Source: Candidatus Methylomirabilis sp. (GTDB taxonomy: Bacteria; Methylomirabilota; Methylomirabilia; Methylomirabilales; Methylomirabilaceae). Taken from it: a DNA stretch of 64,000 bases. Both the position numbers and the translations under genes were made by a program. Position 1 is the stretch's first letter, and the number at the start of each line of letters is the position of its first letter. The notes under the pieces were generated by a model that saw nothing but the letters and a program-made list of their open reading frames with translations, did not search any database and was not told the origin of the DNA. The DNA lies in assembly GCF_028716865.1 (NCBI RefSeq), contig NZ_JAQUOY010000001.1:62001-126000 (forward strand), in the 5' to 3' direction. Positions 3,074 through 62,254 of the stretch are shown one piece after another.

Positions 3074-4321
3074 TCAGGCTGACTCGGCCTTCTTCTTATA
3101 GAGGATGATAGGCGGTTTCCGCTCGACCACGGTCTCGCGGTTGACAATACACTCCGCAATCCCCGACTGTGAGGGGACCTCATACATGATATCGAGCATG
3201 ATCTCTTCAAGGATCGCCCGAAGGCCACGAGCGCCGGTCTGCCGCTTCGCCGCCTCCTGAGCCACAGCGCTGATCGCATCGTCGGTCAGAGTCAATTTCA
3301 CATGCTCAAAATCGAAGAACCGCTGATACTGCCGCAAAAGGGCGTTCTTCGGTTCGACAAGGATCCGCACCAGCGCCTTCTCGTCAAGCTCGTGCACGAC
3401 CGCCATGACCGGCAGTCGCCCCACCAACTCTGGGATAAGGCCATACCGGAGCAGGTCTTCCGGTTGGACATCGGCCAGCAGTTCACTGATCCGCCTTCCC
3501 CGTCTTGCCTGGATCTCGGCGCCGAATCCCATCGATTTCTGGCCGGTCCGATGTTCAATGGTCTTCTCCAGCCCAACGAATGCCCCGCCGCAGATAAACA
3601 GGATATTTGTCGTGTCGACCTGCAGGTACTCCTGCTGGGGATGTTTCCGTCCACCCTGAGGTGGGACATTGGCGACGGTTCCCTCCAGGATCTTTAAGAG
3701 GGCCTGTTGAACACCCTCTCCGGAGACGTCCCGCGTGATAGATGGATTTTCGGACTTACGCGCGATCTTGTCGATCTCGTCGATATAGATGATCCCTCGC
3801 TCTGCGCGCTCCACATCGTAGTCTGCAACCTGTAGCAGCCGAAGGATGATGTTTTCCACATCCTCCCCGACATATCCCGCTTCCGTGAGGGTGGTGGCAT
3901 CGGCGATGGTGAACGGTACGTCCAGGATCTTGGCCAGGGTTTGAGCGAGCAGGGTCTTGCCGCATCCGGTTGGACCGATGAGGAGGATATTTGACTTGGT
4001 CAGTTCGACGTCGTCGAAGGTCATCCTGGCGTTAACGCGCTTATAGTGGTTATGAACGGCGACCGCCAGGCTCTTCTTGGCCCGGTCCTGACCGATGACA
4101 TACTGGTCCAGGATCGACTTGATCTCAGACGGCTTGGGGAGCTCGCCGAGACCCTTGCTCTTTTCCTCCTCCCATTCCTCTGCGATGATATCGTTGCAGA
4201 GTTCAATACACTCATCGCAGATATAGACTGTGGGACCGGCGATCAGCTTTCGTACGTCGTCTTGACTTTTTCCGCAAAAGGAGCAGGTGAGCTTCCCCCC
4301 GCCTTTTACCGCCTTGGCCAT
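3074..4321 (-). CDS. clpX: ATP-dependent protease ATP-binding subunit ClpX
   Basis: ClpX is the AAA+ unfoldase that feeds tagged proteins into ClpP in the cytosol. The 415-residue protein has the N-terminal C4 zinc finger (C13, C16, C35, C38), Walker A GPTGCGKT, the pore loop GYVGEDV, Walker B YIDEIDKI, and the sensor region [12 protein letters not shown]. Length and motif order match the family fully. It lies downstream of clpP on the same strand, separated by about 340 bases that carry an inverted-repeat element, so it may have partly independent expression. Confidence 0.98.
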
Positions 4322-4530
4322 CTACCCCTCCCCCTCGCGTTCCAGGTTTTGATCTCGAAGTGCCGGGCGAACGATCCGCCATATGCGGGTCTTCGCTTGC
4401 GCCACGCTTCCTGGAACACAATACTGTCCATGTACCCTCGATCGTGCAACGATGTTGCTCACAATGGCTACAGGGTCAACTGTAATTGGCGCAATTCTAG
4501 TGTAGTGCATCCAACGGTTCTTTACAAATC

Positions 4531-4610
4531 CCGTTCGCCCTGAGCCTGTCGAAGGGTGAAGTATTTTAATGGGTTCCGTTCATGGGTTCGACAAGCTCAC
4601 CGCGAACGGG
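4531..4610. repeat. Dispersed inverted-repeat pair (CCGTTCGCCCTGAGC family)
   Basis: Two roughly 26-base copies in opposite orientation (4531-4556 and 4585-4610) flank an AT-rich spacer between clpP and clpX. Related copies occur at 8030-8055, 12893-12973 and 44811-44891. The rest of the 4322-4664 gap shows no gene. Confidence 0.75.
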
Positions 4611-4664
4611 TTGTAAGGTATTGGTGAGTCACTATGCTAGACGAGTTAGTATAGCGTTGGCCAT

Positions 4665-5285
4665 CTATAGCGCAGGGGCTGCGGCCGACAATGGAAGGCC
4701 CTCGCGCGAGTGGATCACCTCGTCAATCAGGCCATATTCTTTGGCCTCCTCAGGCGACATAAAAAAGTCGCGGTCGCTGTCTTTCTCAATCCGCTCCAAC
4801 GGCTGGCCCGTGTGATTGGCGATAATTCGGTCCAACTCCTGTCGCATCCGAAGGATCTCTTTTGCCTGGATCTGGATGTCGGACGCCTGCCCCTGGGCTC
4901 CCCCGTAGGGTTGGTGGATCATGATCCGTGCGTGGGGAAGGGCATAGCGTTTCTTCTTGGCGCCGGCCGCCAACAGGAGCGCAGCGCCACTGGCCGCTTG
5001 ACCCATACAGATCGTCTCGATGGCCGGCTTGATATACTGCATCGTATCATAGATCGCCAGTGAGGCAGTGACCGACCCGCCCGGTGAGTTGATGTAGAGG
5101 TGGATATCTTTGTCAGGGTCTTCGGCTTCCAGGAAGAGGAGCTGGGCGATCACCAGATTTGACTCGGCATCATCGATCGGGGTCCCGATGAACAGGATCC
5201 GGTCCTTCAGGAGGCGGGAGAAGATATCGTAAGCTCGCTCACCTCGGCTGGTCTGCTCAACCACCATTGGAATCAGTTGCATCAC
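4665..5285 (-). CDS. clpP: ATP-dependent Clp protease proteolytic subunit
   Basis: ClpP forms the tetradecameric serine protease chamber used with ClpX. The 206-residue protein has the complete catalytic triad by position and motif: S99 in GQAASGAA, H124 in ARIMIHQP, and D173 in the DRDFFM context. The oligomerisation segment and [12 protein letters not shown] are present. It starts 24 bases downstream of the tig stop, giving the conserved tig-clpP-clpX order seen in many bacteria. Confidence 0.97.
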
Positions 5286-5309
5286 GTACGTACTCCCTTT
5301 ATGTGGTGC

Positions 5310-6605
5310 TCAGGCGAGGGTCACGAGGTTGACCCCATCCACAACATTGGCCCGCTCATACAGAAGATCGAGCGCTTTCCGCTCCAGTAATTGCATTCGA
5401 ATGGTTTCAATCCGCCCCTCCCGCTCTAGCAGCTTGCGGAAGGCTTCCGGTTTCTGGTTCAAGGCGACGGCGGTCGATTCGACCTCTTCGTGCAATTCCT
5501 CATCCGACACAACAATCCCTTCCTGCTTCGCCACCGCCTCCAGCAAGAGAGAATTTCGCACCCGTTTTAAGGCAAGCTCTCCCGCCTTGGTCCGCATCGC
5601 CTCTTCTTCACTCTGAGCGGAGGTTGCCTTGTGTCCGCCAACGCTCCGCCTCAAGTCAGTAAGGATCGCCTCGAGCTCCGCATCAACCAGCGACTCTGGA
5701 GGATCAAAGGGGTGGGCGGCACGCAATTTCTCAAGGATCTGGCTCTTCAGACGCCCCACCTGTTCCCGCTCCTTGTGCGCCAGCAGGTCTTGCTTTACCT
5801 TTTCCTTGAGTTCAGGGACATCCTTGCACTCACCCGCTGATTGCGCGAACGCATTATCCAGTGGCGGTACCCGTTTCTTCTTGACCTCTTTGAGGGTGAC
5901 TCTGAAGAGTACCCGCTTTCCTGCCAGCTCCCGTCGTCCGTAATCGGTCGGGAATTCCAGGGAGAACTCCTTGACCTCTCCTTTCTTCAGACCATGGAGT
6001 TGGGTCTCAAACTCGGGGATGAACTGGTGGGCACCGAGAAGGATCGAGGCATTCCGGCCGCTTACGCCCTTGAGCGGTTTACCACCGGCAAAGCCTTCGT
6101 AGTCGACTACCAGGAGGTCTTCCTGCAAGCCGGGCCAGCCATCCATCGGCACGTACTCTGCCGCTTGCTCCCGAAGGTGCTCCAGAGCTCGATCTACCTC
6201 CGCATCCGTTGTCTCGACCTTCTCCTTGGTGATCTCAATCCCGGTGTAACCCGAGAGTTGGAGATCGGGTTTTACTTCGAAGGTAGCCCGGTAGCTGAAA
6301 GGCTTCCCCTCCTCACAGACTATCTCATCCAGTCTGGGCTCGTTCACCGGATCCAGATTGGCCTCCTTGAGCGCCTGACTATAGCTTTCCGGGACGAGTT
6401 CCTGGAGGGCCTCCTGCTTCGCCTCTTCCTTGAAGCGCGAACGCAAAACATCTCGCGGAACCTTACCGGGGCGGAAACCAGGCAGGCGGGCATTTTTGGC
6501 GAGGTGCAGATAGGCCGCCTCCAGCTTGTCCAGGAGGCTTTGGGGGGGCAATTCGATTCGAAGCGCGCGTTTGGTGCTGCTGATCTCTTCGATGTCTACT
6601 TTCAT
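5310..6605 (-). CDS. tig: Trigger factor, ribosome-associated chaperone and prolyl isomerase
   Basis: Trigger factor binds nascent chains at the ribosomal exit tunnel. From the ATG at 6605 it is 431 residues, the usual length. The N-terminal ribosome-binding domain ends in the signature GFRPGKVPRDVL. The FKBP-like domain follows (LLVVDYEGFAGG, LGAHQFIPEFETQL), then a long helical C-terminal domain. The frame is open upstream through the tRNA-Leu gene, but that extension is not plausible protein. A promoter upstream of the tRNA probably serves tRNA, tig and clpP together. Confidence 0.96.
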   Translation of the reverse strand: MKVDIEEISSTKRALRIELPPQSLLDKLEAAYLHLAKNARLPGFRPGKVPRDVLRSRFKEEAKQEALQELVPESYSQALKEANLDPVNEPRLDEIVCEEGKPFSYRATFEVKPDLQLSGYTGIEITKEKVETTDAEVDRALEHLREQAAEYVPMDGWPGLQEDLLVVDYEGFAGGKPLKGVSGRNASILLGAHQFIPEFETQLHGLKKGEVKEFSLEFPTDYGRRELAGKRVLFRVTLKEVKKKRVPPLDNAFAQSAGECKDVPELKEKVKQDLLAHKEREQVGRLKSQILEKLRAAHPFDPPESLVDAELEAILTDLRRSVGGHKATSAQSEEEAMRTKAGELALKRVRNSLLLEAVAKQEGIVVSDEELHEEVESTAVALNQKPEAFRKLLEREGRIETIRMQLLERKALDLLYERANVVDGVNLVTLA

Positions 6606-6634
6606 ATGTATCTCGGAATTAGATGCCGGATTCA

Positions 6635-6721
6635 TGGTGCGAGAGGGGGGACTTGAACCCCCATCCGCCAAAGGCGGACTGGATCCTAAGTCCAGCGCGT
6701 CTGCCATTCCGCCACTCTCGC
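6635..6721 (-). tRNA. tRNA-Leu (anticodon UAG)
   Basis: On the minus strand an 87-base cloverleaf starts with GCGAGAG and ends with CTCTCGC, discriminator A and an encoded CCA. The anticodon stem-loop is CTGGA-CTTAGGA-TCCAG, giving UAG. A long variable arm built on CCGCC/GGCGG marks it as class II, and the T arm contains GGTTCAAGTCC. It lies only about 30 bases upstream of tig. Confidence 0.96.
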
Positions 6722-6748
6722 GTGAGCCGCCGAGCAGGAACGAGAAAA

Positions 6749-6777
6749 ACTATATCATACGGTGAAGCCTCTGTCTA
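6749..6777 (-). promoter_or_regulatory. Sigma-70-type promoter for tRNA-Leu and tig
   Basis: On the minus strand TAGACA (6772-6777) and TATAGT (6749-6754) are separated by 17 bases. Each hexamer is one base off consensus. The predicted transcript starts roughly 20 bases before the tRNA 5' end. Confidence 0.55.
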
Positions 6778-6810
6778 GAAATCTACTTTCTCTGGACAGA
6801 GCTGGTCAGG

Positions 6811-7968
6811 TCAGTCCTGACAGAAAAGCCTCGGCAGGCGCGGGGAGAGGGCAGTGAGGATCTCGTACGGGATGGTCCCCAGTTGCGCTGCCCATTCTGC
6901 GATTGAGATATGTTCCTCCCCGTCGTGCCCAAGGAGCGTAACGATATCCCCATCGGACGCCTCCGGCACATCGGTGATATCGATCAGGCATTGGTCCATC
7001 GTGATCGTGCCCACCTGTCGAGCCCGCCGACCCTGAACGAGAAAGTCGATCCTGTTTGAGAGGGCGCGGGAGATTCCATCGCCATAGCCGATAGATACGG
7101 TAGCTAGACGCGTCCGGCGCGCTGTCCGAAAGGTATGACCGTAACTGACACCGGTCTCCGGTGGAACGGTTTTGACGAAGACGATCTTTGCTTTGAGCGC
7201 AAGGGCAGGGCGAAGAGCAACGACGGCCTGTAAGTGAGAGCTTGGGTATAGGCCATACTGAGCCAACCCGATCCGGACCAGGTCGAAATGGGTGTCGGGG
7301 AACGTCAGGGTAGCGGCAGAATTGGCCAGATGTACCAATGGAGGCCGAAGCCCCTGCCGCTGCAGCATATCCACTAACTTTGCGAACCGTGTGAACTGCT
7401 CCCTGGCTGTTGTGGGATCGACCGCGTCAGCCGTAGCGAGGTGGCTGTACAGGCTGACAACCGACACGCCCGGCAGGACCCTTATCGCGCTCAACAGCTC
7501 CTGAGCCTCCTGCCATGAGACTCCCAGGCGGGACATACCGGTATCGACCTTCAGGTGAATTGGGATCGGCCCCAGACCCGCCTCGGACAAGCGACGGGCC
7601 TGGTCGAGGCTGCAGACGGTCGGTTGCAGCCGATACTCGATAAGTGCGTCGATCTCCTCTTTGCAGATAACGGGGCCGAAGAGGAGAATCGGCGCGTCGA
7701 TCCCCGCCATTCTTAGAGAGATTCCTTCTTCAACTGTGGCGACCGCAAGCCATGAGGCGCCGGCTGACAGCGCAGTCCGAGCGACCGCAACAGCGCCATG
7801 ACCGTAGCCATCAGCCTTGACGACCGACATGAGCTGGGTTGACGGTTGTAGGAGCTGTCGGATAGCTGCTATATTGTGGCGGATCGCCTCGAGATCGACC
7901 TCCACCCAGGCACGGCGGGTCGAGGGAACCCGCTCGGCTGTCCAGCCGAGATCTTGATTAATGCCCAT
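6811..7968 (-). CDS. alr: Alanine racemase
   Basis: This PLP enzyme interconverts L- and D-alanine for peptidoglycan synthesis. The 385-residue protein has the PLP-lysine motif VVKADGYGHGA near the N-terminus, the barrel motif KVDTGMSRLG, and the second catalytic tyrosine in GVSYGHTF. MDQCLIDIT belongs to the C-terminal domain. Length and motifs are typical. It is on the same strand as tig but lies upstream of the tRNA promoter, so it forms a separate unit. Confidence 0.96.
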   Translation of the reverse strand: MGINQDLGWTAERVPSTRRAWVEVDLEAIRHNIAAIRQLLQPSTQLMSVVKADGYGHGAVAVARTALSAGASWLAVATVEEGISLRMAGIDAPILLFGPVICKEEIDALIEYRLQPTVCSLDQARRLSEAGLGPIPIHLKVDTGMSRLGVSWQEAQELLSAIRVLPGVSVVSLYSHLATADAVDPTTAREQFTRFAKLVDMLQRQGLRPPLVHLANSAATLTFPDTHFDLVRIGLAQYGLYPSSHLQAVVALRPALALKAKIVFVKTVPPETGVSYGHTFRTARRTRLATVSIGYGDGISRALSNRIDFLVQGRRARQVGTITMDQCLIDITDVPEASDGDIVTLLGHDGEEHISIAEWAAQLGTIPYEILTALSPRLPRLFCQD

Positions 7969-8029
7969 ACATTCTGATCCTCAGGTACAACCGATGAGCT
8001 GTTGAACCTGTCCTGCGAACTCCCGTTCT

Positions 8030-8055
8030 CCCTTCGACACGCTTAGGGCGAACGG
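8030..8055. repeat. Single copy of CCGTTCGCCCTGAGC-family repeat
   Basis: One copy, in the orientation CCCTTCGACACGC...GCGAACGG, lies between alr and the PEP carboxylase gene. Unlike the other three loci, I see no second inverted partner here. Confidence 0.65.
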
Positions 8056-8064
8056 AATGGGCGT

Positions 8065-9561
8065 TCAGCCCAAAAACTTTCGTATCCAGGCCGCCCGGAG
8101 GATGAGATCGCTGAGGTCCTTGACATTTTCCTTTTCAACCCGTCTGATAATCGTTGCGGTGATTTCCCGGTGGGCGTGATCCTGGGAGAGAGTGGGACGG
8201 AGGAGTCGGACAGTCCTCCGGATCTCCTCCGCCTCAGTGAGGGGGAGGAGGGTGTACACCTCTTCGTTCAGATACTGCAGCGCATCCCCCAGGTCGACTT
8301 CGAACCCAGGGTCGATCTCCCGAAGCAGGGCCAGATCTTCCTGACCAAGGCAGGAAATGCCGAGGATCTCAGGAGGAAGACCTAAGGAGTAGAGGGCGGC
8401 ACAGAAGGAGATGGCCCGGGGAAGCGAGACCCCGCCGATGCTCCGGCTGTAGCCGAACAGACCGATATGCAGTTTCCGCATTCGCCGCCTGGGAACGGTG
8501 GGGGCTATGTGATTCATCAGGGGAGCGATCGCTCGCACCTGGCGCTGATAACAAGCGGAGATCCGCTCAATCAGATCGACGATCCTCCCCTCCGGCTCCA
8601 CCGGCTGGGCGCTCTTTCTGGGTGCGCGCTTCAAGGTCTCGATGGCCTGGATGATGGCGGGAGCCGGATAGTCGTACTTGAAGGCCGATTGGATCGTGAA
8701 CGTCTGAATGCTCGGGTGCTCGGCAAGGTGTCGCTCTACGGTATCGGGTCGGAAGTTGCCCCGAAACGGGGCGCTTCCGGCCCCCAGGATCGGATAGATC
8801 GGAATTCCCAACTCCTCTTCCAGCCTGTCCAGGCGACTTAAGGCCGCCTTTACCAGGAGCCTGGCCGCCAGGCTTCCGTAGTTCAAGGCGGGATCGGATC
8901 GGGCTAAAAAGACGCGCTGGTACGAGAGGTCTTTGTCCTGAAGGTACGCGCGAATGATGGTATCGGCCTGAAGCAACGACTCCTTATCCTCGATCAAGGG
9001 GATGATCTGGATCGCGGTAGGGTGGAACTCGCCAATCCATTCTTTCAGAGGGATATCACCGGGGGTCAGAACCGCCTCCCCCTTCCCCGTGACGAAGACC
9101 TGATAGTACCGGCGCACACGGTTCAGCTCCTCCGCCGAGGTGGTCATGGGGAAGATGATTTCGAAGATGGGGGCGACATCCTCTCCGTAGAAGAAGCGGG
9201 CTACGTCGTTGGCTCTGGGGATTCCCTGGAGAACCTCAAGGAGGATCTTCCCCTGCGACTTTTCTACAGCAGGGTTTGGGACTCGTAAGGTCAGGAACAT
9301 CTCCCGTCCCAGGGGAAACGCCCTGAAGAAGCCTTCGTAGGTCGTCAAGAGCTTCTCAACGACGAACTCATCGACCTCCTTCCCTTCGAAGTCCCACATC
9401 TGCTCATCACAGCCTAAATGGGAGAAGGCATAGTAGGCCTCACGGATCTCGTCCATTCCCTCCATGACAGGTCCCTGGGCGAAGAAGGGGACAGTGACGT
9501 TGTCCGGGTGCTGGGTGCTCATGCAGCGGGGGATGCGGGGGCGGGTCGCGATATCGATCAC
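8065..9561 (-). CDS. ppcA: Phosphoenolpyruvate carboxylase, archaeal type
   Basis: The enzyme carboxylates PEP to oxaloacetate, an anaplerotic CO2-fixing step. The N-terminal IPRCMSTQHPDN is the hallmark of the short archaeal-type PEP carboxylases (about 490 residues), quite unlike the 900-residue bacterial form. YYQVFVTGKGEAVLTPGDIP and GNFRPDTVERHL fit the same family. I chose the GTG at 9561 (498 residues) because it sits 4 bases after the cbbX stop. An ATG at 9645 would give 526 residues but overlaps cbbX by 80 bases. Placement behind cbbX suggests translation coupled to the Calvin-cycle operon. Confidence 0.88.
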   Translation of the reverse strand: MIDIATRPRIPRCMSTQHPDNVTVPFFAQGPVMEGMDEIREAYYAFSHLGCDEQMWDFEGKEVDEFVVEKLLTTYEGFFRAFPLGREMFLTLRVPNPAVEKSQGKILLEVLQGIPRANDVARFFYGEDVAPIFEIIFPMTTSAEELNRVRRYYQVFVTGKGEAVLTPGDIPLKEWIGEFHPTAIQIIPLIEDKESLLQADTIIRAYLQDKDLSYQRVFLARSDPALNYGSLAARLLVKAALSRLDRLEEELGIPIYPILGAGSAPFRGNFRPDTVERHLAEHPSIQTFTIQSAFKYDYPAPAIIQAIETLKRAPRKSAQPVEPEGRIVDLIERISACYQRQVRAIAPLMNHIAPTVPRRRMRKLHIGLFGYSRSIGGVSLPRAISFCAALYSLGLPPEILGISCLGQEDLALLREIDPGFEVDLGDALQYLNEEVYTLLPLTEAEEIRRTVRLLRPTLSQDHAHREITATIIRRVEKENVKDLSDLILRAAWIRKFLG

Positions 9562-57221: not shown

Positions 57222-57301
57222 TCATGGCATGAAACTTCTCTTTTCCCGACGTCCTACCTAGTGTCAAACTGAGGGGTGTGATGGAAAATGTAACGTTAAG
57301 C

Positions 57302-58045
57302 TCAGCGGGAAGGAGCTTTATCCGCATCCGCTGGAACACCTTGTGATACAGCACCTTTCTCGTTTTGTTGTTGCTGTTCAATTTCTCGCTTTTTCTTATT
57401 TGCATCGTCTACGGAGCGAATGTGATTGATGACGCCATGAAAATGAGAAACATCTTGAGAATAGAGTAAGCCAGGGAGAGTATCACCAGCGGCTCGGTTT
57501 GCCTTATATGCGGAAACAATACCAACAACCTTAACCCCATCGGTGCTGTGAAGAAATGTAACCGGACCTCCGCTGACTCCATTAATAGCGACACCGTCAA
57601 TGAGGTAGGCTTTCCTGAAGTCTTGCCACGCACTGATGTTACCGGAAAAGAAACAAAGGGTATAGGGCTCGATAGCGGGAAAGCCGAGCCAACTGACCTC
57701 ATTGCCGATGCTGAGAGGCGTGCCGAGTGGGAGAAGTTCTATAAGCTCACTTGGGAGTTCAAAGTCAGGCTTTTGAAAAAGTATTACAGCGGAATCAGTT
57801 TTCCAATCGGTGATGATGATATATTCCGAATCTTTTAAAAATAATTCCCTAGAGGAACTATGATGAGTCAAGCGAATTGGCTGTTTCCATGTATTAGCAT
57901 ACTCAACAACGTGAAGAGCGGTTGCAACGCCGCACCATGTCTTGGCATCATTATAAAGGAAATGGAATCCAGTTCCGTGGCCTGTTGGAGTTTCGATTTT
58001 AAAGATGTAAGGCGTAACTTTTTGAACTACCTGCTCCCAATTCAC
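57302..58045 (-). CDS. Trypsin-like serine protease
   Basis: The 247-residue protein has a full chymotrypsin-fold triad by motif: H45 in GVATALHVVEY, D84 in WKTDSAVILF, and S158 in INGVSGGPV. There is no signal peptide or PDZ domain, so it is likely cytoplasmic. The last 35 residues are charged and Gln-rich (KKKREIEQQQQNEKG). It lies 72 bases downstream of the FRG-domain gene on the same strand, in DNA more A+T-rich than its neighbours. This small-protease-plus-partner layout is common in defence islands; function unknown. Confidence 0.82.
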   Translation of the reverse strand: MNWEQVVQKVTPYIFKIETPTGHGTGFHFLYNDAKTWCGVATALHVVEYANTWKQPIRLTHHSSSRELFLKDSEYIIITDWKTDSAVILFQKPDFELPSELIELLPLGTPLSIGNEVSWLGFPAIEPYTLCFFSGNISAWQDFRKAYLIDGVAINGVSGGPVTFLHSTDGVKVVGIVSAYKANRAAGDTLPGLLYSQDVSHFHGVINHIRSVDDANKKKREIEQQQQNEKGAVSQGVPADADKAPSR

Positions 58046-58117
58046 GTTTATCGCCTCCTGCTATACTGCCGCATAACAGAGTCGTACCTTCCTTTAGCGT
58101 TGGCCTCCAGTGCCTGA

Positions 58118-59233
58118 TTAGATTTCAAAATTGCGCTCCTTCAGTTCCTCGCAAGCTCCGTCCAACCCCGGAAACAACGAACCTGCTGTGATGCCCATGT
58201 AGCCGAGTTCGCGAACCACCTGCTTACGGTCGCGAACAGGTAAATCAATTGCCGAGAGGTAGTTCTTGCCATTGGATTCCTTGGACTTAATGTACGACTC
58301 AATATCGTCAATATTCGTAAGCGTGGAGGCCGCCTGCTGTGGAATCATTCGCTCGTTTTCGATTGCCATGAACTCTCCAATCGACAAATGAGGCTCGGCG
58401 GCAAGCAACTGCAGCAACTGATTCCAGTCGGTCCTCCACTGTGCTTGATCGAATACCAAAATCCTCACTTTGTCATTGGGATCGGCTTCGGCAGCTTGCT
58501 CATTTGAGATGCCACGATATGCAAAGAAGGCGGCTACATAGGGAGAGTATGTCCAGTCCAAGAGCGGGGTAGGATACCCATGGTGTTGGACCAAGTTGAA
58601 GAAGGCCCCATTCTCATTTGGGATTTCTAAATTGAAGACATGCTTTGTCCTCGCGCTGAGATGCTTATATAGGACTTGAATATCTTCACTCAGAAATCTT
58701 GTCAGGTCAGCCCGCCCGGCGCGATGGAATGACGTGCGCAAGCGCCACGGTTTATTCTGTCCCCGAAATAAGTACCGCCTTCTTTCCAGGCCAGCGACGT
58801 ACTCTTGATAAGCTCTCCATTCTTTGTTTAGCGCCACAAGCCCAGAAGGCTTATCTGCCATAGACCGCGGCAACACGGAGGTGCCTGTCGCCTCGATGTC
58901 CGTCGTCCATGACAGCGTCAAGGAATCATTTCCCCAGAAGCCGGCTACATCGGCATACTTGGAGACAGCCATACTGTCCGAGTAGTGATGCTTAACGCCA
59001 TCCCACAGGGCGGTTGTTCCGGAAAGCGGATCAATCGGTAGTATAAGGTTGGTGCGAAATTGGAAGGCATTCTCCTTGTTTTCAGTCTTGAAGAACGCAG
59101 CGGTGCTGGGGACCGCCTTGTCGCTCTCATTGAGGTAGGCAACGCCTTGATAGTGCGAGGAGCGCTCGTCGATATTGACGATGATCGTACCAGCAGTTGA
59201 GCCGGTGTAGCTACCTATCCACTGCCCCTTCAT
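58118..59233 (-). CDS. FRG-domain protein with unassigned N-terminal domain
   Basis: The 371-residue protein has a beta-rich N-terminal region (residues 1-125; GQWIGSYTGSTAGTIIVNID; DSLTLSWTTDIEATGTS) I do not recognise. The FRG domain follows, with the namesake at 156-158 in YLFRGQNKPWRLRTS and the second conserved block LVQHHGYPTPLLDWTYSP followed by VAAFFAY. FRG domains occur in defence-associated and prophage proteins; their activity is not settled. It is upstream of the protease gene and likely co-transcribed with it. Confidence 0.8.
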   Translation of the reverse strand: MKGQWIGSYTGSTAGTIIVNIDERSSHYQGVAYLNESDKAVPSTAAFFKTENKENAFQFRTNLILPIDPLSGTTALWDGVKHHYSDSMAVSKYADVAGFWGNDSLTLSWTTDIEATGTSVLPRSMADKPSGLVALNKEWRAYQEYVAGLERRRYLFRGQNKPWRLRTSFHRAGRADLTRFLSEDIQVLYKHLSARTKHVFNLEIPNENGAFFNLVQHHGYPTPLLDWTYSPYVAAFFAYRGISNEQAAEADPNDKVRILVFDQAQWRTDWNQLLQLLAAEPHLSIGEFMAIENERMIPQQAASTLTNIDDIESYIKSKESNGKNYLSAIDLPVRDRKQVVRELGYMGITAGSLFPGLDGACEELKERNFEI

Positions 59234-59451
59234 TCCTTAAGCCTTTCTATCACTTGAAATCGAATCACTGCGTATACTGACTGGCATAGTATGCGGCTAC
59301 AGCGCGAACACGTCCATGTGATTCTCGTTTCGATTCACACACTTGTCAACCATATCCCCAACGCTGGTGTGGGGAGAACGGTCTTTCTATACCCGGTACA
59401 CGCCTTCTACGGGGTGAGTCACATGCAGGAGATGAATGCTAGCGGACACCG

Positions 59452-59806
59452 TCAGGAACCACTGTTGGTTCGATCCGCTTCTTCAATCAATCTTTCTACA
59501 TCTTCGAGCAGTTTGTCCAAGTCTTCTTCGATGATGCCCCATACGATCGTGTGGTCGATGCTGTCGTAGCCATGTACGAGGATATTCCTGAACGATGCGA
59601 TGTTGCGATGCTCCCGTATTTTGCCGAGTAGAGCGGGATTGTCCTTCCTGATTCTATTCAGTGCTTCTCCAAGAATCTCGAACTTCCGCTCAACACCACT
59701 CCGGAGTAATTCATCCTACTCATATTCGTCAAATGTCTTTCCACGGACGAACCGGAGAATGGCCGAAGCAGCTTCTCTGATATCGTAGAGGTATTGAGGA
59801 GTTCAT
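59452..59806 (-). pseudogene. hepT: HepT-like (DUF86) toxin, broken
   Basis: The minus strand reads PQYLYDIREAASAILRFVRG, KTFDEYE then an in-frame TAG, then DELLRSGVERKFEILGEALN, and HRNIASFRNILVHGYDSID with the HEPN RxxxxH motif RNILVH, ending at TGA 59452-59454. At the 5' end, ATGA-ACTCCTCAA would be the expected overlap start ATG-ACT-CCT with one extra A, so the start is also out of frame. Both defects indicate inactivation while the catalytic core sequence is kept. Confidence 0.78.
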
Positions 59807-60099
59807 CCTCCATAGATGTTCATCCTCTCCTTGAGAACCCTGCGGCGGAAATAGGGATTTCTGAGACCCCTGACCGTGAGTAGGTCAATCTTGCACCCCA
59901 AGGTATCTTCGAGATAATGGAGCAGTCCAAAGAATCTCTTGGATGGGTGCAGATAGGGCTCCTCGAACTCAACGAGGAGATCAACATCGCTTCCAGCAGT
60001 TCCCGCGCTGCGCGCGAGCGACCCGAAAAGGTCCAGCCTCTTTACTTTGAATTCCCTGCAAGCCGGCACTGCAACACTCTTAATGTCTTGCAAAGTCAT
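59803..60099 (-). CDS. mntA: MntA-like minimal nucleotidyltransferase antitoxin
   Basis: From the ATG at 60099 it is 98 residues (a longer frame to 60201 adds a non-homologous N-terminus). The nucleotidyltransferase site is LFGSLARSAGTAGSDVDLLV, with GS and the DxD metal pair. MntA antitoxins AMPylate HepT toxins. It overlaps the broken hepT downstream, so it is now an antitoxin without a working toxin. Confidence 0.85.
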   Translation of the reverse strand: MTLQDIKSVAVPACREFKVKRLDLFGSLARSAGTAGSDVDLLVEFEEPYLHPSKRFFGLLHYLEDTLGCKIDLLTVRGLRNPYFRRRVLKERMNIYGG

Positions 60100-60200
60100 C
60101 AATGCATCCTCCGAATCGACCCAGGCGCCCTGTAATCGAACTGTGTGGGCTGCTTTAGAGAACGATACAGGCCGATGGCCTATCTTCAAAGGCGGTACCA

Positions 60201-60398
60201 CTATTCACCGGCGAATTTATTCGCAATATCGCACTCGTACCCCAATCGGTCAAGACTCTTCTGGCCGACAATCGCTGGTGGCTTCGGTGACCTTATCTCG
60301 GCCGCCCTATAGACGATCAGCGCGGCTATTGACCCCCAAGTCCACCCCGATTCAGGACTTGCGTAGAGATCATGGTCGTGCTGACATCTTTGCCCCAA
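60201..60398 (-). CDS. Small hypothetical ORF
   Basis: A 65-residue frame (DLYASPESGWTWGSIAALIV; AIVGQKSLDRLGYECDIANK) upstream of mntA. I do not recognise it and cannot exclude that it is a fragment or non-coding. No clear ribosome site is seen. It is on the same strand as its island neighbours. Confidence 0.25.
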   Translation of the reverse strand: MGQRCQHDHDLYASPESGWTWGSIAALIVYRAAEIRSPKPPAIVGQKSLDRLGYECDIANKFAGE

Positions 60399-61669: not shown

Positions 61670-62005
61670 TTAATAAATACATGCATCAAGGATCGATAAC
61701 ACCTCTTCAAACACGGCATCAGAAGCGGTGCCTATACGCCTGACCTTACGCGTACGATAATCTATCGACTTGACCTGCTCAACCATGACAAAGCCGGCCA
61801 CATTCGGATCGTTGGGAACAGCCACATGAAATGGGAATCCTCGATCTGTCTTCGTGACAGGACAGACGATCGCAAGGCCGGTATGTTGGTTAAACAGCGT
61901 ATTGCTGACCACTAAGGCCGGCCGTCTGCCCCTCTGCTCGTGGCCGGACTGGGGATCGAACGTCACAGTAACGAAGTCGCCTTTTTTTGGTATGTAGTCG
62001 GCCAT
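61670..62005 (-). CDS. mazF: MazF/PemK-family endoribonuclease toxin
   Basis: The 111-residue protein has the PemK/MazF barrel: IPKKGDFVTVTFDPQSGHEQ, RGRRPALVVSN (catalytic Arg region), GLAIVCPVTKT (catalytic Thr) and VMVEQVKSIDY. MazF cleaves mRNA at short sequences unless bound by MazE. The start directly follows the mazE stop, so translation is coupled. All motif positions are intact. Confidence 0.92.
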   Translation of the reverse strand: MADYIPKKGDFVTVTFDPQSGHEQRGRRPALVVSNTLFNQHTGLAIVCPVTKTDRGFPFHVAVPNDPNVAGFVMVEQVKSIDYRTRKVRRIGTASDAVFEEVLSILDACIY

Positions 62006-62254
62006 TTACCACGATTCTCTGCCGACTGGTTGTCCCCAATCAATTTCTTCTGTTTCATAGTCGCTAGGGATGCGAGAGACCAGTTTCTGAAGGCTATGTT
62101 TTCCACGCACACGCCGCACAGGAGCAATGACGATGACACCATCTCTTGCGCGTACATCAACATCGTCACCAAGCGAGATGTGCGCTTCCTCAAGAACATG
62201 CTTGGCTAGGCGAAGTCCTTGGCTATTACCCCATCTTTGGATCTTGGTCACCAT
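62006..62254 (-). CDS. mazE: MazE-family antitoxin
   Basis: The 82-residue protein has the swapped-hairpin AbrB-like DNA-binding domain (TKIQRWGNSQGLRLAKHVL; EAHISLGDDVDVRARDG) and an acidic C-terminal tail that binds MazF (SDYETEEIDWGQP). AAGGAGGGTCGATT precedes the ATG. Its promoter at 62280-62308 carries a short palindrome, as expected for autorepression by MazE-MazF. Confidence 0.92.
   Translation of the reverse strand: MVTKIQRWGNSQGLRLAKHVLEEAHISLGDDVDVRARDGVIVIAPVRRVRGKHSLQKLVSRIPSDYETEEIDWGQPVGRESW

What the first reader, a model, noticed from the sequence alone, without database searches (positions are those of the whole stretch)
57302..59233. Protease-FRG two-gene cassette in a decayed defence island
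The sequence shows an intact trypsin-like protease (triad H45/D84/S158, no signal peptide) 72 bases behind an FRG-domain protein with a 125-residue N-terminal domain I cannot place. Both are on the same strand in visibly A+T-richer DNA. Neighbours are a restriction-modification scar on one side and toxin-antitoxin genes on the other. Established knowledge: FRG domains and small cytoplasmic proteases both occur in anti-phage loci. Inference: the pair is a defence module where one protein may sense and the other may kill or cleave.
Basis: partly seen in the sequence, partly recalled or inferred. Interest (0 to 1): 0.72.

Follow-up and report, generated by a model that had tools for sequence, protein, structure and literature searches.

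The report
Two integron cassettes, not one module
The two neighbouring genes, a predicted NAD-acting toxin-type protein (FRG) and a small protease, are real and intact, but they most likely lie side by side because each arrived as a separate mobile gene cassette in a now-frozen bacterial integron, so they are two plausible stored phage-defence genes rather than a two-part weapon.

Summary
In detail: an intact FRG-domain gene (58118-59233, -) and, 72 bases behind it, an intact trypsin-like protease gene (57302-58045, -) in A+T-richer DNA. The inferred two-protein module is not supported. Nineteen FRG relatives with the same N-terminal domain (4 bacterial, 15 on phage contigs) have no protease beside them, five protease loci have no FRG, and 46 FRG-bearing genomes hold no protease relative. 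What recurs is an integron. In same-genus genomes the flanks are conserved but break at window 57295|57296 and near 59265, with other cargo between (HEPN/AbiU2, HNH, DUF5677) that ends in attC-type sites. An attI/promoter-like element precedes FRG, an integrase scrap lies upstream, and a sister genome has the intact integrase. Decisively, relatives of the FRG gene (L022, L023) and of the protease gene (L167, L168) are each, separately, followed by attC hairpins starting at the stop codon. The window's own attC sites have decayed, so the array is probably frozen. FRG relatives also occupy the P2-phage gpA-gpQ anti-phage hotspot, so FRG alone is a credible defence gene. Function remains inferred.

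The parts
58118..59233 (-). FRG-domain protein, 371 aa: N-terminal beta-barrel (1-123) plus FRG domain (153-244) and C-terminal part
   Evidence: PF08867 4.5e-20; PDC-S15 2.9e-39; 16-sequence alignment; AF2 pLDDT 86.5; barrel matches nitrobindin and designed beta-barrels
57302..58045 (-). Stand-alone trypsin-like serine protease, 247 aa, GTG start behind AGGAGG; triad H45/D84/S158
   Evidence: relatives 62-63% identical in L166 and L167
59267..59395 (-). attI/Pc-like element: TTGACA (59349-59344), 17-nt spacer, GAGAAT (59326-59321); repeated in sister genomes, ending at GTTRRRY-type cores
   Evidence: positions
59259..59265 (-). Insertion-point core ATTCGAT (imperfect GTTRRRY); start of the FRG cassette
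   Evidence: sister copies read GTTGGGC, GTTAGAT, GTTGAGC, GTTCGGC at this place
58071..58126 (-). Decayed attC of the FRG cassette (inferred): ATCTAAT overlapping the FRG stop, GTTATGC ahead of the protease; no hairpin
   Evidence: L022 and L023 have ATCTAAC plus a hairpin (z -3.9, -4.2) at the same place; window z +1.0
57289..57301 (-). Collapsed attC of the protease cassette (inferred): GCTTAAC directly abutting GTTACAT; end of the cassette slot at 57295|57296
   Evidence: breakpoint shared by sister arrays, which have RYYYAAC-type starts and then GTTATAT here
60335..60391 (-). Integron-integrase C-terminal remnant KDVSTTMISTQVLNRGGLG
   Evidence: 79% identity to intact IntI of G013 over 19 aa, E 0.002
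60145..60354 (-). First attI-like region behind the integrase remnant
   Evidence: 66% identical to the DNA behind intact intI in L125, E 2.7e-23
59803..60201 (-). MNT-type nucleotidyltransferase (toxin-antitoxin type) in the same array
   Evidence: NTP_transf_2 1.4e-11; DNA shared with L095, L100, L102
56678..57115 (-). Conserved chromosomal flank with a type I restriction C-terminal fragment
   Evidence: EcoEI_R_C 1.3e-11; 91-96% identical DNA in sister genomes

Best explanation
The segment 59264-57296 is the cassette content of a decayed chromosomal integron in a genome that looks like a member of Candidatus Methylomirabilis. It holds two separately acquired gene cassettes on the minus strand: first the FRG cassette, next to an attI/Pc-like element, then the protease cassette ending at 57295. 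Their attC sites have decayed and no intact integrase was found in this genome, so the array is probably frozen. How each gene works is inferred. FRG: a stand-alone abortive-infection-type enzyme; its beta-barrel N-terminus senses a ligand or phage cue, and the FRG domain, assigned in the literature to the ADP-ribosyltransferase superfamily, then consumes or transfers from NAD+. Protease: a stand-alone cytosolic endopeptidase of the type fused to Lamassu, Hachiman and DRT proteins, with an unknown target. Shown: the boundaries shared with sister arrays, the independent cassette status of relatives, the lack of pairing. Inferred: defence role, NAD chemistry, sensing. The confidence below is for the two-cassette origin; for the FRG mechanism as stated I would give about 0.45.
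For: Same-genus DNA is conserved on both flanks but breaks at 57294-57296 in five arrays and at 59267-59275; an alignment shows unrelated sequence before, and conserved sequence from, the G of GTTAYATTTTCCATC in seven arrays. Six sister arrays show RYYYAAC-type starts before that point; the fold is significant for G010 (z -4.5) and weak for some others. G010 has a further canonical attC inside the slot. Intact integrase (TIGR02249 469.5 bits, cut-off 265) in G013, remnants beside attI-like elements in several genomes and the window. FRG relatives L022 and L023 are followed by attC hairpins starting at the stop codon (z -3.9, -4.2), and L022 is also preceded by one ending GTTAGAT (z -3.4); protease relatives L167 (z -5.5, attC-like sites on both sides) and L168 (z -4.4) likewise. 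Control: 1 hit of the scan in 54 kb of the rest of the window. No pairing. Defence: with PMC9122126 and PMC12409362.
Against: The window's own attC sites lack any significant hairpin (z -0.8 to +1.3), so cassette status here rests on comparison. The attI core is imperfect. R'' at 57301-57295 touches R' directly. The integrase remnant is 19 residues with a weak E-value. A single two-gene cassette is not excluded. No phage-defence activity has been tested, and the protease model was too poor to use (pLDDT 37).
Confidence: 0.8

Rival explanations
1. The pair is one functional defence module: the protease cleaves the FRG protein, for example in the linker after the N-terminal barrel, and so releases the FRG enzyme on infection, as in the trypsin-gated nuclease systems.
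For: Same strand, 72-base gap, shared promoter position; the protease is related to LmuA/HamA/DRT proteases, which activate partner pro-nucleases (PMC12799240); FRG has a separable N-terminal domain.
Against: No recurrent adjacency; 46 FRG-bearing genomes have no protease relative; the same N-terminal barrel is present in FRG proteins with no protease nearby; each gene is an independent cassette elsewhere.
Confidence: 0.06
2. The segment is a single two-gene integron cassette (one mobile unit), whose genes may or may not cooperate.
For: No recognisable attC hairpin between the genes (z +1.0 to +1.3); two-gene content without a detected internal attC also appears in some sister slots.
Against: The FRG stop sits in ATCTAAT, one base from the ATCTAAC attC start of L022/L023, and a GTTATRC core lies at about the same distance ahead of the protease as in L167; relatives of each gene are single-gene cassettes.
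Confidence: 0.14
3. The genes came by another route (prophage or transposon) and the breakpoints are coincidental.
For: FRG relatives are common on phage contigs and one lies beside insertion sequences; a protease scrap lies in a phage-labelled contig.
Against: Breakpoints coincide to the base with the attC ends of sister arrays; no phage or transposase gene was recognised in the segment.
Confidence: 0.04

Closest known systems
Chromosomal integrons as stores of anti-phage cassettes (Darracq et al. 2025; Kieffer et al. 2025, as reviewed in PMC12409362)
   Same: Small genes between recombination sites behind attI; sister slots carry HEPN/AbiU2, HNH and DUF5677 genes typical of defence
   Different: In the sister genome the integrase gene points the same way as the cassettes; here the array is decayed, and no activity has been tested
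FRG-domain proteins, PADLOC candidate PDC-S15 (PF08867; Frg clade of the ART superfamily in PMC9503650)
   Same: FRG domain with conserved FRGQ, QHHGYPTPLLDW and PQQ motifs
   Different: This subgroup carries a conserved N-terminal beta-barrel that none of the libraries searched names
Trypsin-like proteases of nuclease-protease defence systems (LmuA, HamA, Avs, DRT; PMC12799240)
   Same: Trypsin_2 fold; profile matches to LmuA, DRT-XI and, in relatives, HamA
   Different: Stand-alone, not fused, no MBL-type pro-nuclease beside it
P2 gpA-gpQ anti-phage hotspot genes (PMC9122126)
   Same: FRG-barrel relatives in L141 and L144 lie between gpA and the portal gene
   Different: The window copy is in an integron, not a phage; FRG is not named in the main text of that paper

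Membership tests
Integron gene cassette | Bounded by recombination points G|TTRRRY shared with other arrays | tested here: met
   Breakpoint 57295|57296 identical in sister arrays; the other end at ~59265 has an imperfect core ATTCGAT
Integron gene cassette | attC hairpin at the 3' end of the gene | tested here: not met
   Not in the window (z -0.8 to +1.3); met in relatives L022, L023, L167, L168. So the window units are at most decayed cassettes
Integron platform | attI with an integron integrase | tested here: inconclusive
   The window holds a 19-residue remnant and attI-like DNA; intact IntI in sister genome G013; none over the cut-off in the window's genome
FRG family (PF08867) | Profile match above cut-off with conserved motifs | tested here: met
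   72.8 bits against 25; motifs invariant in 16 sequences
ADP-ribosyltransferase superfamily | ART fold and NAD+ use | tested here: inconclusive
   Structure-search hits were dominated by the N-terminal barrel; the assignment is from PMC9503650; NAD+ use is not testable here
Trypsin-like serine protease | Profile match and intact His-Asp-Ser triad | tested here: met
   24.8 bits, just below the 27.6 cut-off; close relatives 28.5-30.8 bits; triad conserved
Nuclease-protease defence pair (PMC12799240) | Protease fused to a defence protein, with an upstream MBL-type nuclease gene | tested here: not met
   Stand-alone ORF; the upstream gene is FRG
Two-gene FRG-protease defence module | Recurrent adjacency in unrelated genomes | tested here: not met

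The most novel reading that the evidence does not exclude
Integron shuffling has assembled a new two-part defence system: the protease cassette, dropped behind an FRG cassette and read from the same promoter, has become the activator that cuts the barrel off the FRG enzyme, a gain of function by cassette order alone.
Probability: 0.05. Interest if true: 0.75.

Novelty: new member of a known kind. Interest (0 to 1): 0.5.

Why it matters
It replaces a speculative module by a testable picture: an integron in a little-studied lineage that stores FRG, protease, HEPN and HNH genes, extending the integron-as-defence-store idea beyond the well-studied hosts. It also warns that neighbouring genes in an integron array are not evidence of joint function, which matters for guilt-by-association searches for defence systems. 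The barrel-FRG family, found in integrons, a plasmid and the P2 hotspot, is a good stand-alone candidate for a phage test.

Tried and rejected
Pairing by operon: looked for the protease near about 30 FRG loci and in 46 FRG-bearing genomes, none, and for FRG near protease relatives, none. Protease in plasmids and phages by tblastn: no match. Protease in viral contigs: only a C-terminal scrap; the alignment query found nothing. Rfam scan of the region: nothing credible. A strict attC scan found no site in the window and the relaxed scan found only one inside the FRG coding region on the other strand, judged chance. Structure of the protease from a single sequence: useless. Solved-structure sequence searches: nothing. 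Viral structure library: no match below E 0.001. Literature: no paper in the library links FRG to a protease, or integron integrases to Methylomirabilis-type names.

Full report
1. The observation. The window carries an intact 371-aa FRG-domain gene (58118-59233, minus) and an intact 247-aa trypsin-like protease gene (57302-58045, minus), 72 bases apart. FRG matches PF08867 with 72.8 bits and PADLOC candidate family PDC-S15 with 133 bits; the protease matches Trypsin_2 slightly below the cut-off and the protease domains of DRT-XI (5.7e-8) and LmuA (6.7e-8). H45, D84 and S158 are conserved in relatives. The DNA is A+T-richer than the rest.

2. Do the two genes travel together? No. Close FRG relatives with the same N-terminal domain lie in L022 (66%), L023 (67-70%), L024 (53%) and L025 (35%); none has a protease gene beside it. 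Fifteen further full-length relatives on phage contigs (L133-L147) and other FRG loci show no protease nearby by tblastn. The whole genomes behind L022-L024, and 43 other FRG-bearing genomes, hold no protease relative; the same query does find the protease elsewhere, at up to 286 bits, so it works. In 369 genomes of one class, FRG was found in 27, a weak protease match in 2, and both in none. Protease relatives: L029 (35%), L166 and L167 (62-63%), L168 (truncated, 68% over 93 residues) and a scrap in L030; none has FRG beside it. Some of these contigs are short, so absence next door is weaker for those.

3. What does recur. A DNA search in related genomes showed that the flanks are conserved (86-96%) but the two-gene segment is not. 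Homology ends at 57294-57296 in five arrays and at 59267-59275 on the other side. On the minus strand the right-hand element reads TTGACA-17-GAGAAT and then, in sister copies, a GTTRRRY-type core (GTTGGGC, GTTAGAT, GTTGAGC): the layout of an integron promoter and attI. At the left-hand end seven arrays share GTTAYATTTTCCATC onward and nothing before it. Before it, six sister arrays show RYYYAAC-type starts (GCCTAAC, CCCTAAC, GTCTAAC); G010 has strong hairpins there and inside the slot (z -4.5 each), while the fold signal is weak in some others. The window has GCTTAAC directly joined to GTTACAT right after the protease stop codon.

4. The platform. An intact integron integrase (TIGR02249, 469.5 bits against a cut-off of 265) is present in sister genome G013; one other genome passes the cut-off with a broken copy, the rest hold fragments, and the window's genome has none above the cut-off. 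In G013 the integrase is co-directional with the genes that follow it and lies behind imuB and dnaE2. The window has a 19-residue integrase scrap (60391-60335) followed by DNA resembling the G013 attI region (E 2.7e-23).

5. The decisive point. Both gene families are integron cassettes elsewhere, and separately. Behind the FRG stop codon, L022 and L023 read ATCTAAC plus a hairpin (z -3.9 and -4.2), and L022 also has an attC-like hairpin ending in GTTAGAT shortly before the start codon (z -3.4). Behind the protease stop codon, L167 and L168 read GCCTAAC plus a hairpin (z -5.5 and -4.4), and L167 has another attC-like site upstream. The scan gave one hit in 54 kb of control sequence. The window's FRG stop codon lies in ATCTAAT, one base from ATCTAAC, with GTTATGC a little over 30 bases ahead of the protease start, much as GTTATAC lies ahead of it in L167; the hairpin is gone. 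Two cassettes with decayed sites is therefore the most likely history; one two-gene cassette remains possible.

6. What the slot holds in sister genomes. HEPN_AbiU2 (L089), two HNH proteins with matches to PDC-M68A and CBASS endonuclease effectors (L091), HEPN (L090), DUF5677 with a PDC-S52 match (L097). This is the sort of content reported for defence-storing integrons (PMC12409362, citing Darracq 2025 and Kieffer 2025).

7. Function. FRG: the AF2 model is good (mean pLDDT 86.5, pTM 0.83). The N-terminal domain is a beta-barrel; its best solved matches are a designed beta-barrel and nitrobindin (E 3e-4 to 8e-4), which suggests ligand binding but does not prove it. The FRG domain is placed in the ADP-ribosyltransferase superfamily, as a possible NADase effector, by PMC9503650; I could not test this. 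Two phage relatives (L141, L144) lie between the gpA replication gene and the portal gene, the P2 hotspot of validated defence systems (PMC9122126): independent support for a defence role of FRG alone. The protease is of the type fused to Lamassu, Hachiman and DRT proteins, where it activates a pro-nuclease (PMC12799240), but it is unfused and no such nuclease lies beside it; its target is unknown.

8. Organism. Inferred, not shown: a small phylum, 2-3 Mb same-genus genomes, and a same-genus single-contig genome of 2,752,854 bases, which I recall as the size of Candidatus Methylomirabilis oxyfera. The L022 record is titled Roizmanbacteria; a 3.5-kb contig in such a MAG may be misbinned.

9. 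Verdict. Observation confirmed; module interpretation not supported, defence flavour partly supported; an ordinary reason for the adjacency (an integron array) found. Interest is moderate.

Noticed in passing
L125 (5079-11131) and L127 (about 3364-8936): An integron integrase lies directly behind imuB and dnaE2 in the same direction, its start codon overlapping the dnaE2 stop in L125; attI-like DNA and cassette-like genes follow the integrase. An SOS-mutagenesis gene run carrying an integron integrase.
   Followed up: partly
window 59452-59802, minus: The HEPN partner of the MNT gene is broken by an internal TAG at 59718-59716.
   Followed up: partly
L141 and L144, 5001-6143: FRG-barrel genes lie between phage gpA and the portal gene of P2-like phages, a known anti-phage hotspot.
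   Followed up: yes
L166, 7091-9451, minus: A 786-aa protein with a nucleoside deoxyribosyltransferase/TIR-effector-like start and a P-loop-like motif follows a protease relative; possibly a separate defence gene.
   Followed up: partly
L030, about 5001-5190: C-terminal scrap of the protease in a contig classed as viral.
   Followed up: partly
window 61670-62254, minus: MazE/MazF (PemK) toxin-antitoxin pair.
   Followed up: no
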